A stretch of 64,000 bases of DNA from Acidobacteriota bacterium (GTDB lineage Bacteria; Acidobacteriota; Terriglobia; Terriglobales; SCQP01). The notes under the pieces were generated by a model. That model had not been told where the DNA came from, ran no database searches, and saw only the letters and a list, made by a program, of their open reading frames with translations. The position numbers and the translations under genes are program-made. The stretch spans positions 62,001 to 126,000 of the forward strand of contig DAIDIE010000036.1 of assembly GCA_027459505.1 (NCBI GenBank), read 5' to 3'. How positions within the stretch are numbered: the stretch's first letter is position 1; each line of letters starts with the position of its first letter. Of this stretch, positions 1 to 50,425 are shown piece after piece.

Positions 1-1173
1 ATCTGTACTCTCTGTACCCGCCAGCGCCTCGCTCCCGCTCACCATCTCACGCGCCAGTTCCAGGACGTTCACCAGTGCGTCAGGCGTGTGGGCGTAATCC
101 ACAACCACGGTAAACGGCTGTCCAGCGTAGACCCGCTCAAAGCGCCCACGCACGCGCGGCAGGCGGGGAACCTCTGCCAGCACCTTCTCCCGGTCCACGC
201 CCAGGGCGAGCACCGTGCCGATAGCCGCAAGCAGGTTGTAGACATTTACCCGCGCCAGCAGGCTGCTCTCCAGTGGCGCCTGCCAGTCCGGTCCTTGCAG
301 TTGAAAACGCACCCCGGTGGGCAGCATTCGCAGATCGCCGGCCAGCAGCAGTTCATCGTTGCGGCGCGAGCGAACCGCTTCCGCACGCGCGCTGTACCAG
401 AGGCGGCGCCCGGCAAATCCCGCAACCATCTCCTCCCCGGCGGGATCGTCGGCGTTGACGACGGCGGCATTGGGCGCCCCCGCTCCCGTGCCCTCAAACA
501 GACGGCGCTTAGCGTCCCGGTAAGCCGCCATCGTGCGATGAAAATCCAGATGGTCCTGCGTAAGGTTGCTGAACACCGCCACGTCGAAGTGACATCCCCA
601 GACGCGATCCATGGCGAGCGCGTGCGAGGACACCTCCATCACCGCGGCCGTGCATCCGGCCGCCACCATCCTGGCAAACAGCGCCTGCAAGTCATACGAT
701 TCCGGCGTGGTGTGCGGGGAAGCGATCACCTCGCCGCCCACGTGGTACTCCACCGTGCCGATGAGTCCGGTGCGCCACCCGGCCGCCCGCAGCAGCGACT
801 CGGTCAAAAACGCGGTCGTCGTCTTGCCGTTGGTTCCGGTAATGCCCACCAGCTTCAAACGTCCGGCGGGGCGCCCAAACCAATTGGCCGATGCCGTGGC
901 CAGCGCGCGCCGCGCCTGCGCCACCCGCACCCAGCACACACCATCAAGACCGGGGGGCGCCGGCTGCTCGGAGAGCACCGCGATCGCGCCGTTCTTAACC
1001 GCGGCTCCAACAAAGTCGTTGCCGTCCGCCACCTCGCCCCGGATCGCCACAAAAGCCTGTCCCGGTTGTATGCGGCGGGAATCGTAATGCAGGCCCTGGA
1101 TGGAAATCTGCTCGGCGCTGGGCGCGACAGGTTCAACCAATTCGATTTGCTCGAGCAGCGTCTTTAAGTCCAT
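1..1173 (-). CDS. murE: UDP-N-acetylmuramoyl-tripeptide synthetase MurE (3' end cut by window edge)
   Basis: Cytoplasmic ATP-dependent ligase that adds the third amino acid (meso-diaminopimelate in most Gram-negatives) to UDP-MurNAc-L-Ala-D-Glu. The minus-strand frame runs open from the ATG at 1173 to base 1, about 391 residues, against roughly 490-510 for the family, so the C-terminal ligase domain is missing. The Mur-ligase ATP loop GTNGKTTT begins near residue 113. An early DSRRIQPGQAFVAIRG stretch is the usual substrate-binding N-terminal domain. It sits 137 bases downstream of ftsI in the same direction, as in standard dcw clusters. The DAP-versus-lysine specificity motif lies near the C-terminal edge of what is visible and I could not assign it. 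Confidence 0.95.
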   Translation of the reverse strand, partial: MDLKTLLEQIELVEPVAPSAEQISIQGLHYDSRRIQPGQAFVAIRGEVADGNDFVGAAVKNGAIAVLSEQPAPPGLDGVCWVRVAQARRALATASANWFGRPAGRLKLVGITGTNGKTTTAFLTESLLRAAGWRTGLIGTVEYHVGGEVIASPHTTPESYDLQALFARMVAAGCTAAVMEVSSHALAMDRVWGCHFDVAVFSNLTQDHLDFHRTMAAYRDAKRRLFEGTGAGAPNAAVVNADDPAGEEMVAGFAGRRLWYSARAEAVRSRRNDELLLAGDLRMLPTGVRFQLQGPDWQAPLESSLLARVNVYNLLAAIGTVLALGVDREKVLAEVPRLPRVRGRFERVYAGQPFTVVVDYAHTPDALVNVLELAREMVSGSEALAGTESTD

Positions 1174-1310
1174 TCAGTACTCACGAACCCCGTTTTTCTT
1201 ATACTAAGCTGCGCCGGCCGTACCCAGCGGCGCACGAGTGGGGAGTTCCGGGTTGCGTCTTGTTTCAGGGCCGCGCCGCTACTCCTGTCCTTTGCTCAAG
1301 CATCCACAAC

Positions 1311-3344
1311 TTATTCGCTGAAACGGATCAGAACCTTGCTGCCTGGCACCACCGCGACCCCGGCGGCGGGCGATTGAGAAACGGCGACACCATGCCCTTG
1401 CAGGATGGGGTCCAGCCCCAGCCGTTCGCATTCTCCGGCAACGACACGTACCGGCTGCCCGCTGAAGCTGGGGACGGTCAGCCCTTTCCCCAGATTCACA
1501 ATCACCGAGCCCGGCGCCGGCGAATACGGCTGCTGGTCGCCGTTGATTTCCGCCGTGTCGGACGTGCCGGAATCCGTCACTGCCTGAGCGGCATCGGCAA
1601 GTTCGCCACGGGAGCGGCCGGAACCTTCGCTTGCTGGATGGGCGCCGGCAAGCAGCGATGGTGGCGCGCTGTTCACCGGCACATCATGCGGCACACCCAG
1701 ATACGGCAGCACCCGCTCCGCAATACGCTTGAAGACCGGACCTGCAACCTTGCCGCCCTCGTGCCCGCCCCGTGGTGAGTCGATTACCACCAGCACGGTG
1801 ATGGCTGGGTTCTGCAGGGGAGCAAAGCCGGCAAAGCTGGCCACGTAGTCGGTCTTGGAATACCCATGGCCGCCGGGATCAACCTTTTGCGCGGTTCCCG
1901 TCTTGCCCGCGGCGGTGTAACCATTGAGCTGTGCCGGCTGAGCCGTGCCGGCCAAGACCACCTGCTCCAGCATCATCTTCATTTCGTTGGCCACACGCCC
2001 GCTGACGATGCGCCGTCCCAGCGGCACCTGGTACTGCGGCAGCGTGGCCGGACGGGGGCCGGTAAAGCGGTCCAGAACAATGTGCGGAGAATGATACACG
2101 CCGCCATCAGCCACTGCCGACACCATCGAGACCACCTGGATCGGCGTGACCGCGATCTCCTGGCCCATGCTGATCGCCCCAATCGACATCGGCGTCCAAC
2201 GGTCCGGCGGACGCGCCAGGCCCCGCGACTCCCCCGGCAGTTCAATGCCGGTCTTCTGGCCAAAGCCATAGGCGCGTATGTACTTGTAAAACCGGTCATC
2301 GCCCAGCCGCAACCCCAGCTTGATCGCTCCTACGTCGCTGGAGTGCTGAATGATCTGCGTCGGCGTGAGAATGCCAAACCGGGCGTGATCGTGAATCAGA
2401 CGGCCACCCACCCAGATCGATCCCATCTGGCAATCAATTGGCTCGTCGGGATTGGTGAGGTGCTCCTGCAGCGCCGCCGACACGGTAACAATCTTGAACA
2501 CCGACCCGGGCTCATAGACGTCGGTGACGGCCGGGTTCTGCAGATAGCTGGGGTTGGTGTGAGCGTAATCGTTGGGATTAAACGACGGCGAAGTGGCCAT
2601 GGCCAAGATCTCGCCGGTCGAAGGCCGCTCCACAATGACGGTGCCGCGCAGCGCGTGCGTGCTGGCCACCGCGGCGTCCAGTTCCTGTTGCGCGATGTAC
2701 TGGATGTTCTCGTCAATGGTGAGCACCAGGTTCTCACCCGCGTCCAGGTGCTCGGAAAGATGATTGTAGGAGTGCTGGTGCGCGTCCACCTGCACCAGCA
2801 TGCTGCCCCTCTGCCCCTGAATTTCAGGATTGAACTCGCGCTCGATGCCTCCCAGGCCCTTGTTGTCCAGCCCCACGTAGCCCAGCACCTGCGCCGCCAG
2901 CGTGCCCTTGGGGTAAAACCGCTTGGGCTCTTTCTGGAAGTAAATGCCTTTCAGATCAAGCCGGTGCAGCCGCAGACTCTGCTCCGCGGTAATCTTGCGC
3001 GCCACCCAGCAGAAGCTGCGCGAGGCGTGCATGCGCCCGGCCAGGTCCTTTTCGTCCAGTCCCAGCACACCCGCCAGCGCATGCGCGGTCGCTTCGATGT
3101 CATGGATCTGGCTGGGAACGGCAAAGACCGAGTCTACCCGCAGGCTCATCGCCAGCGGATGCAGGTCGCGGTCATAGATCACGCCGCGCGGCGCGCTGAC
3201 GTCAATCGTTCGCAATTGCTGCCGCTCGGCCTTGTGCAGGAGAAACCCGTAGTTGAAAACCTGCAGATCGAAAAGCCGCGCACAGACCAGCACCGCCCAC
3301 CCGACCAGCACGGCTTCCATAAGGGTGATGCGGCGAGGATTCAT
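1311..3344 (-). CDS. ftsI: Division-specific class B penicillin-binding protein (FtsI/PBP3) with C-terminal PASTA domain
   Basis: Septal peptidoglycan transpeptidase of 677 residues. One N-terminal transmembrane helix spans about residues 8-24, followed by the PBP dimerisation domain (about 50-200) and the transpeptidase domain (about 240-545). The acyl-serine motif SVFK is at 281-284 and KTG is at 481-483. The second motif reads SSD (335-337) instead of the usual SxN. A low-complexity linker (about 555-612) leads to one PASTA domain (about 615-677) ending the protein; PASTA domains bind muropeptides or beta-lactams in other PBPs. It is preceded by ftsL and followed by murE. The position in the dcw cluster makes FtsI more likely than an elongation-specific PBP2. 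Confidence 0.95.
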   Translation of the reverse strand: MNPRRITLMEAVLVGWAVLVCARLFDLQVFNYGFLLHKAERQQLRTIDVSAPRGVIYDRDLHPLAMSLRVDSVFAVPSQIHDIEATAHALAGVLGLDEKDLAGRMHASRSFCWVARKITAEQSLRLHRLDLKGIYFQKEPKRFYPKGTLAAQVLGYVGLDNKGLGGIEREFNPEIQGQRGSMLVQVDAHQHSYNHLSEHLDAGENLVLTIDENIQYIAQQELDAAVASTHALRGTVIVERPSTGEILAMATSPSFNPNDYAHTNPSYLQNPAVTDVYEPGSVFKIVTVSAALQEHLTNPDEPIDCQMGSIWVGGRLIHDHARFGILTPTQIIQHSSDVGAIKLGLRLGDDRFYKYIRAYGFGQKTGIELPGESRGLARPPDRWTPMSIGAISMGQEIAVTPIQVVSMVSAVADGGVYHSPHIVLDRFTGPRPATLPQYQVPLGRRIVSGRVANEMKMMLEQVVLAGTAQPAQLNGYTAAGKTGTAQKVDPGGHGYSKTDYVASFAGFAPLQNPAITVLVVIDSPRGGHEGGKVAGPVFKRIAERVLPYLGVPHDVPVNSAPPSLLAGAHPASEGSGRSRGELADAAQAVTDSGTSDTAEINGDQQPYSPAPGSVIVNLGKGLTVPSFSGQPVRVVAGECERLGLDPILQGHGVAVSQSPAAGVAVVPGSKVLIRFSE

Positions 3345-3452
3345 GTCAAAGGTCGGTTACTTTGGGAAATCAGAACCGGCGCGGCCCTTCCGGGCTGCCG
3401 TTCAGCGATCGTAAGTATTCGAAGTAACGTCTTGGAACCCCTCAGCTCCCGC

Positions 3453-3896
3453 TCACTGCCCAGCCTGGCCGCGGCTCTGCGACCACAGCGATCCCGGCGA
3501 CGCAACCGGCAATGACTGACTGGCTTCCGCCAGCACCGGGGCGCCGCTATCGCTCGGCATGGGCTCATCCATCCGGATCACCTGTCCGGGCGCCGCCGTC
3601 GACATGCCCAGATCCTGCTCGGCCAGGGAATAAATCCGTATCGGGTCGCGCAGCGAAGCCTGCTCCAGGCGCAGCGAACGGTTCCACTGCTGCAGCCCGT
3701 TGGCTTTGGCGCGTAACTGTTCGGTCTCATACCCCAGCCGCACAATCTGGAAACTCTGCCAGGCGTAGCCCAGAACGCAGAAGAACAGCAGCGCGATGCA
3801 CACCGCCAGCACGCACTGCTCGCGCTCGCGGCGCGGGTCGCGAACGGGAATCAGCCGGGAGTTGTCGATGTTCTGCACGAAGTAAACGTCTGTCAT
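3453..3896 (-). CDS. ftsL: Cell division protein FtsL-like
   Basis: Small bitopic membrane protein of 147 residues. It has a charged cytoplasmic N-terminus, one hydrophobic helix (about residues 28-48), then a leucine-zipper-like coiled coil (about 50-85) and a Pro/Ser-rich periplasmic tail. FtsL sequences are poorly conserved, so the call rests on topology and on the position between rsmH (17 bases upstream) and ftsI (108 bases downstream). It would recruit FtsI and FtsW as part of the FtsQLB complex. The tail beyond about residue 95 is longer than in typical FtsL and of unknown role. Confidence 0.82.
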   Translation of the reverse strand: MTDVYFVQNIDNSRLIPVRDPRREREQCVLAVCIALLFFCVLGYAWQSFQIVRLGYETEQLRAKANGLQQWNRSLRLEQASLRDPIRIYSLAEQDLGMSTAAPGQVIRMDEPMPSDSGAPVLAEASQSLPVASPGSLWSQSRGQAGQ

Positions 3897-5652: not shown

Positions 5653-5898
5653 GCTCACGGATGGTGGCCGCGCTTTACTAGCCCGAGTTCGTCACTCAGC
5701 TGCGCTTCTGCGATCTAGCGGCATGCGGCTTTTCCTGTTGGGAAAAGCCGCACTCTTCTCCGTCCCAACAACCCTCCTGGTGACGAACTCGGGCGTCGCC
5801 AGCGGTGCGGGACCTAAGCGGCAACCCCGGACCTTCGGCTTCGGCCTGCGATTTCGAACTCGAAAGCAGTTCAACTCGGCCCTGGCTCGTCAGGAACC
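5653..5898. repeat. Structured dispersed repeat, copy A
   Basis: About 240 bases that recur at 15673-15924 with high identity (aligned by eye at a constant offset of 10020 until a 6-base insertion in copy B). It contains nested inverted repeats. Outer arms of 15 bp, perfect (5681-5695 GCCCGAGTTCGTCAC pairing with 5780-5794), enclose a 12-bp perfect hairpin (5724-5735 with 5741-5752, loop TGTTG). Downstream is the short palindrome TTTCGA-AC-TCGAAA. Any frames inside are not conserved between copies. It could be a non-autonomous mobile element, a structured RNA, or a REP-like element. Confidence 0.85.
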
Positions 5899-5928
5899 CA
5901 CTGGCGCGAGCCACCGAGTCCTCCGCCA

Positions 5929-13977: not shown

Positions 13978-14453
13978 ATCAGCCTCCAGTCAACGTGCGG
14001 TCTCTGCGCTGCAATCAGCATAGCGCAGGGGAGTTGCCAGTTGCCGGTTGTCAGTAAGCCGGTTGTCCGTTGCAGGTTGTCAGTGGGGCGCTGCCCTGGG
14101 CTGGCGGCGCGCACGAGCCTGGCAGTGCACAGTGATGCGGGAGCGGAAGCGTTGGAGCTCGCCCGATCGCGGAGGGCTGCGGTTGGTTGTACGCTCCGCC
14201 GGCGCCCGCCTCTGGCGCTTACCGGCCAGCGCCGAAAATATTCCAAGCGCATCAGTTCGCTACTATGGCCTGGCTCAGTGCTGCGGCACAATGTGCGCAA
14301 GGGCACGCCCCTGCCGCGTTTACCGGCGGTCACCAGCTGCGTACCGCTACCCGTTCTGGTAGCCTGTGAGCGCGCAGCGCCGTTGCGAGCCAGGGGCAAC
14401 TCGAACTGGTTTCGTTCTCGATACGGCCGTGCCGCTTCTGAATTGGAGAAAAC
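13978..14453. other. Divergent intergenic region without convincing gene
   Basis: 476 bases between the oppositely oriented esterase and Sel1 genes. It presumably contains both promoters, though I cannot pick -10/-35 pairs with confidence. Frames in the region have no recognisable features. It includes a short degenerate repeat (14032-14084). Confidence 0.6.
14032..14084. repeat. Degenerate short tandem repeat (GTTGYCAGT-like)
   Basis: Variants of TTGCCAGT, CCGGTTGTCAGT, CCGGTTGTCCG and GCAGGTTGTCAGT follow each other with irregular spacing. This is a simple intergenic repeat of unknown role. Confidence 0.6.
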
Positions 14454-15584
14454 ATGCGGCCAATTGCATTCCAAACATTTCTAACTGTTGGTCTGTTTGC
14501 TCTGGCAGCGAGTCCGCTACTGGGAGGCAGTTACTCCCCGAACCATGGCAGCCGGCATGCGCGGCCGGAGGCGTTGTCGAGCGCCATGCGGCGGCTGGTA
14601 AAACGTGCGCAGGCCGGTGACGCGAATGCCGCCGACGACCTGGGGCGAGCCTACGAGAGGGGCGCGGGGATCGAGCGCAACAACGCTGCCGCCCTGCGCT
14701 GGTTCCGCAAAGCGGCCGCCGGCGGCAATGCCAGCGCCATGCTGAGCCTGGCGGGCGACTACGAGGCGGGCCGGCGCGGCGTTGTCCACAACCGACATCT
14801 CGCTGAGCTCTGGTATCAGCGTGGCGCCAAGGCGGCACAGGCAGGGGCAGCGCGCGGCGATGCCCGGGCGGAAAACTCGTTGGGCTGGCTCTATGCGCAT
14901 GGACGAGGCGGTATTCCCAGAAACCTCGCCCAAGCGGCTCGTTACTTCCGCCGCGCCGCGGCGCAGGACAACGCCGACGCCATCACCAACCTGGGCTGGA
15001 TGTATGCCGAGGGCTGGATAGGAGGAGCCCAAAACGATTCCCAAGCGATCCCTCTGTTCCGCAAGGCGGCGCTGGCGGGAAACGACATTGCACAAAATGA
15101 CCTGGCGCTGGCCTACTTGCATGGCAAGGACGGCCTCCGCGTGGACAATGCCAAAGGCCTGCGCTGGCTGAAGATAGCATTGGCACAAAACAGCAACGCC
15201 GCCTTGAATACCATGGGAGAGCTTTACCAGTACGGCGAGGGCGGATTGCGCCAGGATGAAATCCGGGCGGAGGGTTACTTCCTGCGCGCCGCGCACAATG
15301 GCGACGACATCGCGGAAAACAATTTGGCATGGCTGTATCTGACCGCCAAAGACCCGCGCGAACACAAACCGGCCGCCGCCCTCACGTGGGCACGGCGCGC
15401 GGTTGCCGGGGAACGCGACAACGACAACAACTGGGACACGCTCGCGGACGCCTACTTCCAGAGCGGACGCCTGCGCGCGGCGGTGCGGGCCGAAGAACGT
15501 GCATTGGCGCTGGCTACTCCAGCGGACAAGGCGGGCTTCAGCAAGAGTCTGAAAAAGTATCAGGCGGCGGAGAAGAAACACTGA
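14454..15584 (+). CDS. Secreted Sel1-like repeat (tetratricopeptide-type) protein
   Basis: A 376-residue protein with a signal peptide (about 1-24) followed by six to seven Sel1-like repeats. They are visible as recurring A..LG..Y..G.G....N...A..WF.KAA patterns between about residues 50 and 300 (for example DDLGRAYERGAGIERN, NSLGWLYAHGRGGIPRN, TNLGWMYAEGWIGGAQND). A final TPR-like pair (about 310-365) follows. Such solenoids mediate protein contacts in the envelope. The gene stands alone: the upstream neighbour is divergent and a repeat element follows. Confidence 0.9.
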   Translation: MRPIAFQTFLTVGLFALAASPLLGGSYSPNHGSRHARPEALSSAMRRLVKRAQAGDANAADDLGRAYERGAGIERNNAAALRWFRKAAAGGNASAMLSLAGDYEAGRRGVVHNRHLAELWYQRGAKAAQAGAARGDARAENSLGWLYAHGRGGIPRNLAQAARYFRRAAAQDNADAITNLGWMYAEGWIGGAQNDSQAIPLFRKAALAGNDIAQNDLALAYLHGKDGLRVDNAKGLRWLKIALAQNSNAALNTMGELYQYGEGGLRQDEIRAEGYFLRAAHNGDDIAENNLAWLYLTAKDPREHKPAAALTWARRAVAGERDNDNNWDTLADAYFQSGRLRAAVRAEERALALATPADKAGFSKSLKKYQAAEKKH

Positions 15585-15672
15585 AAGCGGCACGGCCGCT
15601 TTTATTCCACCCGCTTCGGTGTCCGGCCCCCACCTCACGCCGCGCGGCGCGGCGCGGGGACCCCCGGCCGAA

Positions 15673-15924
15673 GCTCACGGATGGTGGCCGCGCTTGACTA
15701 GCCCGAGTTCGTCACACAACGGGGCTTCTGTGATCGAGCGGCATGCGGCTTTTCCTGTTGAGAAAAGCCGCACTCTCCTCCGCTCCAACGACTCGCCTGG
15801 TGACGAACTCGGGCGTCGCCAGCGGTGCGGGACCTAAGCGGCAACTCCGGACTTTCGCTACGACTTCGGCCTGCGATTTCGAACTCGAAAGCAGTTCGAC
15901 TCGGCCCTGGCTTGTCTGGAATGC
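15673..15924. repeat. Structured dispersed repeat, copy B
   Basis: Second copy of the element at 5653-5898, same orientation. The 15-bp outer arms (15701-15715 and 15800-15814) are unchanged. The inner hairpin keeps 11 of 12 pairs, with the loop altered to CTGTTGA. A 6-base insertion (CTACGA) follows the ACTTTCG near 15854-15860. It lies between the Sel1 gene and the membrane His-rich gene, about 10 kb from copy A. Confidence 0.85.
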
Positions 15925-30154: not shown

Positions 30155-30289
30155 TCGAAAAGGCCGGCCCGCGCCGGCGCGCGTCCGCTCAGATGGCGTG
30201 GGAGATGGAGGCGATGTGGCGGGAGGGCTTCAAATGAAGCGTTCTCACCGGCATCCGACGATTCCCGCGAATCGTGAGTGGACCAGAAA

Positions 30290-30457
30290 CTTAAGGCAGG
30301 TCTCCTGACTCGCGCGTCAACGTTGCGCTTCGCCTTCCCCTTGCGAGTGGCATTATGAAGCGAACTCAGCGCTTACAGTGGCGGGGCCGTGTGGGAATCG
30401 CACCCAACTTCCCTTTTTCAATCCCCCCAAACGGTGGGGGAATCACCTTAAGCAATG
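30290..30457 (-). ncRNA. Cobalamin riboswitch
   Basis: On the minus strand the complete aptamer landmarks occur in order: 5' P1 arm CTTAAGGTG (near 30455-30446), then a GGGAAGTTGGGTGCGATTCC core with GCCCCGCCACTGTAA. These are followed by AATGCCACT, GGGGAAGGCG and the B12 box AGTCAGGAGACCTGCCT (30310-30294), and the 3' P1 arm CTTAAG. This is the canonical adenosylcobalamin/cobalamin-sensing architecture. It heads the btuB-to-bluB operon and should repress it when corrinoid is plentiful. Confidence 0.97.
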
Positions 30458-30466
30458 CAGGAGGGT

Positions 30467-49587: not shown

Positions 49588-50259
49588 GTGTCTGAAAACG
49601 GAACTCAAAAGCGAATCACGGTTTGCGTCTTAACTCCGCATCCGCTGGTATTGACGGAGTTTCAGCGCATTCTTGCGGAAGCACCCTTCCAGGTGAAAGC
49701 CATCCGGCTGGAGCCGGGGCAGACCGATCTTCTCGATGGCGTGCCCATGGCGGACACTTTTTTGGTGGACGTGCACGCCGCCGTGCCGCGCGGGCCGGCG
49801 CTGATCGCCAGCCTCATGGCGCGCTACCCCGATTGCCGGGTGATCGCGGTTGCGGAGCGCTTCAGCGAGGAAAGTGCGTTCCCACTGCTCAGCGGCGGCG
49901 CCAAGGGCCTGATGACCTATGAGCAAGCTCCGCGTTTCGCCCAGAGCGCAATTGAGTCCATCGCCGCGGGCGGATTCTGGGTTCCGCGCATGCTGTTGTC
50001 GCGTTTTGTGGACGCCATTCTTTCCCGCACGCCGGTGCGCCGCCTCAACAACAACACCCAGGAGCTCAGCCCCCGCGAGCAGCAGGTCCTGGAAGGTCTG
50101 ATGACCAATCTGTCCAACAAGGAAATCGGCAATCAACTGCACATTTCCGAACGGACAGTGAAATTCCACGTTTCCAACCTGCTGACCAAATTCGGAGTAC
50201 GGCGGCGGGCGGATCTGATCGTGCTGGGCTATCAGCAAGCGCCGCGCGTGGCGGTTTGA
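49588..50259 (+). CDS. LuxR/NarL-type response regulator with atypical receiver
   Basis: A 223-residue transcription factor from the GTG at 49588 (protein MSENGTQKRITVCVL); the longer frame upstream runs antisense through the xre gene and is not real. The receiver domain (about 8-130) keeps an Asp in TFLVDVHAAV but has TPHP where the acidic DD pair should be. Canonical phosphorylation is therefore doubtful. The GerE HTH (about 155-215) is complete: LSPREQQVLEGLMTNLSNKEIGNQL, SERTVKFHVSNLLTKFGVRRRADLI. No kinase gene is adjacent; it lies near, and in opposite direction to, the xre operon. Confidence 0.9.
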   Translation: MSENGTQKRITVCVLTPHPLVLTEFQRILAEAPFQVKAIRLEPGQTDLLDGVPMADTFLVDVHAAVPRGPALIASLMARYPDCRVIAVAERFSEESAFPLLSGGAKGLMTYEQAPRFAQSAIESIAAGGFWVPRMLLSRFVDAILSRTPVRRLNNNTQELSPREQQVLEGLMTNLSNKEIGNQLHISERTVKFHVSNLLTKFGVRRRADLIVLGYQQAPRVAV

Positions 50260-50425
50260 GGCACGCCCTCGTCTCCTTCAGGCCGCCCACTCCGGTTGGC
50301 CGCTGGCGCAATTTCGCGGCCCAAAAGCGGCCATGCGAAACGATTCCGTGCCAAACCCTGGCACAACCAACGTGCACTGACCAGTGGGCATCTACGCTCC
50401 TCAGAATCCGTTTTGAGGAGGAGCC

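What the first reader, a model, noticed from the sequence alone, without database searches (positions are those of the whole stretch)
5653..5898. Two-copy structured dispersed repeat with nested inverted repeats
About 240 bases recur at 15673-15924. Outer 15-bp arms are identical in both copies and an inner 11-12-bp hairpin is retained while loop and flanks vary, suggesting selection on structure or recent duplication. It contains no conserved protein frame and no transposase is nearby. It may be a non-autonomous element, a REP-like element or an expressed structured RNA.
Basis: seen in the sequence. Interest (0 to 1): 0.6.

Follow-up and report, generated by a model that had tools for sequence, protein, structure and literature searches.

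The report
Strand-biased hairpin-ended mobile repeat family
The two repeats are members of a family of about 140 short, hairpin-ended mobile DNA elements in this uncultivated Acidobacterium; related families (about 300 copies in one relative) insert without the usual target duplication and point the same way along each stretch of chromosome, although no enzyme that could move them was found.

Summary
The genome carries 135 left ends and 143 right ends of one element. The basic unit is 162-174 bp (left-end hairpin GCGGCACGGCCGC plus T-run; right end CGACTCGGCCCTGGCTCGT). Related elements with the same layout occur in three other genomes of the same family; one has 298 right ends. In both well-sampled genomes there is no target-site duplication and the fourth base right of the element is G (97% and 93%). 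Four nested insertions in the relative rejoin exactly. Orientation is strongly biased per contig (p<=5e-5). A second, internally unrelated family has similar ends and the same target rule. Right-end hairpins show compensatory changes across genera. No Y1 transposase or plausible reverse transcriptase was found in the richest genome, so the mover is unknown. Best reading: a non-autonomous element moved in trans by a replication-coupled, probably single-strand mechanism that resembles, but was not shown to be, IS200/IS605.

The parts
15587..15915 (+). full-length composite element (329 bp), both ends intact; starts 2 bp after the stop codon of the Sel1-repeat ORF 14454-15584
   Evidence: left/right end patterns and alignment with the other full-length composite copies
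5653..5890 (+). 5'-truncated composite copy (the finding's first copy), intact right end
   Evidence: left-end hairpin absent, homology starts at GCTCACGG
14385..14435 (-). 51-bp mini-copy: left end GCGGCACGGCCG and right end CCCCTGGCTCGC with almost no interior; right flank AACG
15587..15608 (+). left end: terminal hairpin GCGGC-ACG-GCCGC followed by TTTTATTCC; 135 copies genome-wide
   Evidence: reversed-pattern control 0
15630..15669 (+). optional ~40-bp GC-rich hairpin unit (0-3 tandem copies in different elements)
15701..15814 (+).
   Evidence: basic elements without it read ACTAGTCGCC; L040 lacks it exactly
5681..5794 (+). same 114-bp palindrome in copy 1
15745..15771 (+). inner hairpin GCGGCTTTTC...GAAAAGCCGC of the palindrome
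15825..15850 (+). first right-end hairpin (GTGCGGGACCTAAGCGGCAACTCCGG here); hairpin conserved in three genera
15868..15906 (+). second right-end hairpin GGCC-TGCGATTTCGAAC...GTTCGACTC-GGCC; nearly invariant internal loop, covarying upper stem
5843..5881 (+). same second right-end hairpin in copy 1
15907..15919 (+). right terminus CTGGCTTGT plus target tetranucleotide CTGG (G at +4)
5882..5894 (+). right terminus CTGGCTCGT plus target tetranucleotide CAGG (G at +4)
50257..50276 (+). left end of the second family (TGAGGCACGCCCTCGTCTCC); no right end found nearby
5902..5920 (-). right end of the second family (GACTCGGTGGCTCGCGCCA) lying about 11 bp from the right end of copy 1

Best explanation
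A family of small non-autonomous mobile elements. Shown: a 162-174-bp unit with fixed ends (left hairpin; two right-end hairpins and a short tail), about 140 copies in this genome and about 300 in a relative, inserted with no target-site duplication at sites whose fourth base to the right is G, with strong orientation bias along contigs. Inferred: both cut sites obey one rule, since the target is |NNNG and every left end begins |GNGG. I propose that an enzyme acting in trans recognises the end hairpins in single-stranded DNA exposed at replication forks, cuts 5' of NNNG at target and left end, and rejoins the element without making a duplication. The nested palindrome and GC-rich hairpins are passengers inside the ends, and the composite was then amplified as a subfamily. 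The enzyme is unidentified.
For: Copy number with zero-match controls and 298 right ends in G006 (control 1). Common ends with interiors giving lengths from 51 to 404 bp. No TSD above shuffled flank pairings, +4 G 97% and -2 A 49% in G000 (69 copies); +4 G 93% and -2 A 48% in G006 (75 copies). Four exact nested insertions in G006 whose uninterrupted hosts already carry the G. Second family with an unrelated interior, similar ends and +4 G 83% of 24. Orientation bias: G000 85/100 in the majority direction vs 71.8 expected, p=5e-5; G006 40/42 vs 29.9 and 83/92 vs 63.6, no simulation as high in 100,000; fourfold-site GC skew +0.020 vs -0.106 for genes on and opposite the element strand. Right-end hairpins: 21 cells changed on both sides vs 8.8 in shuffles, covariation score 0.157 vs at most 0.084 when slid. 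The left hairpin keeps pairing with C-G, T-A or A-T at its second pair in the three end types.
Against: No Y1 transposase was found in G006 (about 300 copies) or G003; the two in G000 are not flanked by the element. One nested insertion in G000 lacks 4 bp of its host, and one second-family insertion lacks about 6 bp, so joining is not always exact. IS200/IS605 elements use a tetranucleotide target 5' of the left end; here only one base, to the right, is strict. If the bottom strand is taken as the active one (to fit that logic), it is not the G-rich strand. The strand assignment is indirect: the G-rich strand is also A-rich and genes show no clear strand preference.
Confidence: 0.55

Rival explanations
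1. A mobile element moved in trans by a double-strand recombinase that leaves no duplication (for example an IS110-type or serine recombinase), with orientation bias coming from coupling to the replication machinery rather than from single-strand chemistry.
For: No TSD and clean joins; a review notes that several IS families bind the sliding clamp and show orientation bias (PMC5371812).
Against: From general knowledge, IS110-type insertion is guided to conserved flanks and leaves a shared core dinucleotide; neither is seen. These transposase families were not searched for.
Confidence: 0.15
2. Retrotransposition of a structured RNA (SINE-like): the element is transcribed and copied back by a reverse transcriptase.
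For: Conserved structure with covariation; some 5'-truncated copies with intact 3' end.
Against: Truncations occur at both ends and left and right ends are about equal in number (135 vs 143); the only reverse transcriptases found are an RT-Cas1-like protein in G006 and an unrelated ~700-aa RT in G000; no TSD.
Confidence: 0.1
3. A regulatory RNA or transcription terminator kept by selection at many sites, with dispersal incidental.
For: The left end looks like an intrinsic terminator (hairpin plus T-run); in the window the full copy starts 2 bp after a stop codon; pairs covary across genera.
Against: No consistent orientation to neighbouring genes (--:20, +-:13, ++:9, -+:9 among clear cases); short copies lack much of the conserved core; no Rfam relative. 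A cis-regulatory role does not predict a target-base preference or strand bias along contigs.
Confidence: 0.1
4. A replication-polarity motif (Chi- or KOPS-like) selected in one orientation, so that the strand bias is functional rather than a trace of insertion.
For: Strong orientation bias in two genomes.
Against: Known polarity motifs are short, not hairpin-ended 170-bp elements with insertion junctions; the element is absent from most relatives.
Confidence: 0.05
5. A simple local duplication of 240 bp in this window.
For: The two copies alone would allow it.
Against: About 140 dispersed copies with unrelated flanks.
Confidence: 0.01

Closest known systems
IS200/IS605-derived non-autonomous elements (palindrome-associated transposable elements)
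   Same: No TSD, end hairpins, precise joins, orientation bias linked to replication (literature: PMC5371812, PMC6006769).
   Different: No Y1 transposase in the richest carrier genome; no fixed 5' target tetranucleotide; the strict base lies 4 nt to the right of the insertion; the left hairpin is at the very terminus.
REP/REPIN and CGTC-tagged REPs with RAYT (TnpA-REP)
   Same: High-copy, mostly intergenic, hairpin-forming; CGTC REPs also lack a dedicated transposase (PMC3733652).
   Different: Unit 162-174 bp, not 20-50 nt; no GTAG/CGTC foot as the tag; the RAYT-like genes in this genome are not flanked by it.
ERIC / RU-type enterobacterial intergenic repeats and other MITEs
   Same: Similar size, dispersed in intergenic regions, hairpin-forming, non-coding, mover often unknown (general knowledge; PMC2759123 for sizes).
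   Different: Found only in one acidobacterial family; no TSD; modular interior; strict NNNG right flank; strong strand bias.
Integron attC cassettes
   Same: Folded single-stranded recombination sites and lagging-strand preference.
   Different: No attC core (GTTRRRY/RYYYAAC) at the junctions by eye; dispersed rather than arrayed.

Membership tests
IS200/IS605 non-autonomous element | No target-site duplication, exact insertion | tested here: met
   (4 nested cases in G006 exact; 1 case in G000 lacks 4 bp)
IS200/IS605 non-autonomous element | Hairpins at both ends | tested here: met
   left stem keeps pairing as C-G, T-A or A-T in the three end types
IS200/IS605 non-autonomous element | Related full element with a Y1 transposase and the same ends in the genome | tested here: not met
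   2 in G000 without these ends, none detected in G006 and G003
IS200/IS605 non-autonomous element | Conserved tetranucleotide target 5' of the left end, guided by bases 5' of the hairpin foot | tested here: inconclusive
   only NNNG on the right is strict; a mirror-image reading (bottom strand CNNN|) would fit but was not tested
IS200/IS605 non-autonomous element | Orientation follows replication, active strand on the lagging-strand template | tested here: inconclusive
   bias clear; strand assignment rests on GC skew only
REP / RAYT system | 20-50-nt palindrome with GTAG (or CGTC) foot | tested here: not met
REP / RAYT system | RAYT gene flanked by the repeat | tested here: not met
Classical MITE (DDE-mobilised) | Target-site duplication | tested here: not met
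   (no clear excess over shuffled flank pairs)
Classical MITE (DDE-mobilised) | Terminal inverted repeats | tested here: inconclusive
   ends share GGCC cores and can pair (-13.9 to -18.2 kcal/mol), but identity is weak outside G006
Group II intron or retroelement derivative | Reverse transcriptase able to move it | tested here: not met
   one RT per genome, RT-Cas1-like in G006, a different protein in G000
Known Rfam RNA family | Match at gathering score | tested here: not met
IS110-type (bridge RNA) derivative | Related transposase in carriers | not tested

The most novel reading that the evidence does not exclude
An undescribed single-strand transposition system: hairpin-ended elements with arbitrary interiors are moved in trans, at replication forks, by an enzyme outside the known Y1 (IS200/RAYT) family that cuts 5' of NNNG at both the target and the element's left end.
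Probability: 0.2. Interest if true: 0.8.

Novelty: new variant of a known kind. Interest (0 to 1): 0.55.

Why it matters
Small intergenic repeats such as ERIC, CGTC REPs and many bacterial MITEs have no known mover. This family gives an unusually sharp record of its own insertion chemistry (exact joins, one strict target base, similar ends on unrelated interiors, strong strand bias) in genomes where the usual suspect was not found, which makes the search for the responsible enzyme tractable.

Tried and rejected
Local duplication: rejected by about 140 copies. Palindrome as the mobile unit: rejected as the main unit, since most copies lack it and read through the site. RAYT as a flanking partner: rejected. 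Y1 in carriers: none detected in G006 and G003. IS91-type Y2 (PF04986): no match in the family, but the control rang nowhere, so uninformative. Reverse transcriptases: read and set aside. Autonomous longer element with these ends: orphan left and right ends in 20 loci and twenty further 20-kb pieces were scanned for paired ends, none showed a longer paired unit, but only roughly a fifth of the genome was read. Gene-orientation bias: none. Plain GC skew of single 20-kb pieces: too noisy, replaced by fourfold sites. Rfam with permissive threshold: only weak hits. Integron attC and IS110 logic were considered from junction sequence and memory only.

Full report
What was checked. The two copies are real: 5653-5890 and 15673-15915 align at 219 of 243 columns, with identical 15-bp arms and a kept inner hairpin. 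A search of the window's own genome (G000, 4.06 Mb, 45 contigs) found 45 matching pieces, about 40 distinct copies. All of these loci were read with flanks.

True unit. Pattern searches with the two ends found 135 left ends and 143 right ends; the same patterns read backwards gave none. The common form is a basic element of 162 or 174 bp. About 40 are composites: a 114-bp palindrome sits between ACTA and GTCGCC of the basic element, and 0-3 copies of a ~40-bp GC-rich hairpin sit after GTCCGGCC. One copy (L040) reads ACTA|GTCGCC, lacking the palindrome exactly while keeping a GC-rich unit. Lengths range from 51 bp (window 14385-14435) to 404 bp with both ends kept, so the ends define the unit. 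In the window, copy 2 is complete (15587-15915), 2 bp after a stop codon, and copy 1 is 5'-truncated.

Relatives. Among 60 genomes first searched with the DNA (own included), only G006 matched besides the own genome, through 43 bp of the right end. A pattern over one genome per species found MAG YP1.bin64 and MAG ZJ1.bin67, plus two single hits that look like chance. Within the held members of the family (14 genomes), G000, G001, G003 and G006 carry it; among 399 genomes drawn from the class, only G000 and G001 matched a covariance model (strict filters; G003 and G006 were not listed among its matches and may not have been drawn). G006 has 298 right ends. The layout is shared (terminal left hairpin and T-run, two right-end hairpins, short tail), while much of the sequence outside the right-end core differs.

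Insertion record. For 69 elements in G000, no word shared between left and right flanks clearly exceeded shuffled pairings; position +4 to the right is G in 97%, +3 is G in 48%, -2 is A in 49%. For 75 elements in G006 the figures are 93%, 48% and 48%. Four G006 elements sit inside other copies of the element, and joining the flanks restores the host copy without a gap at the junction; the uninterrupted host already has the G. One nested case in G000 lacks 4 bp, and a second-family insertion into an element lacks about 6 bp. A second family in G000, with unrelated interior but ends GAGGCACGGCCTC...GACTCGGTGGCTCGCTCCT, also shows G at +4 (83% of 24). Left ends of all types begin GNGG (GCGG, GTGG, GAGG), so target and left end share the form |NNNG; that this is one cutting rule is my inference.

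Strand bias. Elements on one contig mostly point the same way: G000 85/100 in the majority direction against 71.8 expected (p=5e-5); G006 40/42 against 29.9 and, with a larger list, 83/92 against 63.6 (none of 100,000 simulations as high). Skew at fourfold-degenerate sites puts the element's top strand on the G-rich strand (+0.020 versus -0.106), which by the usual convention has the sequence of the leading strand and so is the lagging-strand template. This assignment is indirect: the same strand is relatively A-rich, genes show no strong strand preference, and only contigs with a majority orientation were used. Neighbouring genes show no consistent orientation.

Structure. On 15 right ends from three genera, a hand-drawn two-hairpin structure pairs 90.7% of cells; 21 cells change on both sides against 8.8 in shuffles, and slid versions score at most 0.084 against 0.157. 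The number of pairs with two-sided change (4) does not exceed shuffles, and the structure was drawn from these sequences, so the support is moderate. The internal loop around TGCGAT and the strand CGACTC are nearly invariant. Such conservation could serve binding of single-stranded DNA or RNA. Rfam holds no relative.

Mover. The two Y1 transposases of G000 have no copy of this element in the flanks read. G006 and G003 have none detected (G003 is 89% complete). The only reverse transcriptases are an RT-Cas1-like protein in G006, by my reading of its sequence, and a different ~700-aa RT in G000. An IS91-type search was uninformative. IS110, serine and tyrosine recombinases were not searched. No longer element with these ends was seen, but only part of the genome was read.

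Interpretation. The family is a set of non-autonomous mobile elements (high confidence). The single-strand, replication-coupled mechanism is inferred from absence of duplication, end hairpins and orientation bias, which are traits of IS200/IS605 transposition (PMC5371812, PMC6006769), but the defining enzyme was looked for and not found, so it is not filed as a member. Orientation bias alone is not specific, since other IS families show it (PMC5371812). Three papers in the library contain the left-end 13-mer, all on unrelated subjects.

Noticed in passing
G000 loci L132, L165, L234, L249; window 50257-50276 and 5902-5920: Second repeat family (GAGGCACGGCCTCGTCTCC...GACTCGGTGGCTCGCTCCT, 117-308 bp, often 180-189) with similar ends and the same right-flank G.
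   Followed up: partly
L035 (G000:C9) near locus position 3000-3100: A separate, diverged copy of the palindrome (GGGTTCGTCAC...GTGACGAACCCA) seems to exist outside the element.
   Followed up: no
L110, L124, L070 (G006 / MAG YP1.bin64): Some G006 elements carry tandem GCAATTCCTGCGGAATTGC hairpins inside the ends, a parallel case of hairpin modules as passengers.
   Followed up: no
L054 (G000:C42:123703): RAYT-like gene flanked by its own REP-like repeat GATGCCCACTCAAC...GTTGAGTGGGC.
   Followed up: no
L186 (G000:C39) 253-2358 minus: 701-aa protein with a reverse transcriptase domain, possibly a defence RT.
   Followed up: no
L185 (G006:C28) 220-3457 minus: RT fused to what reads like a Cas1 region, next to a Cas6-like ORF: possibly an RT-CRISPR adaptation module.
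   Followed up: no
window 30278-30465 minus: Cobalamin riboswitch (Rfam RF00174, 112.7 bits).
   Followed up: no
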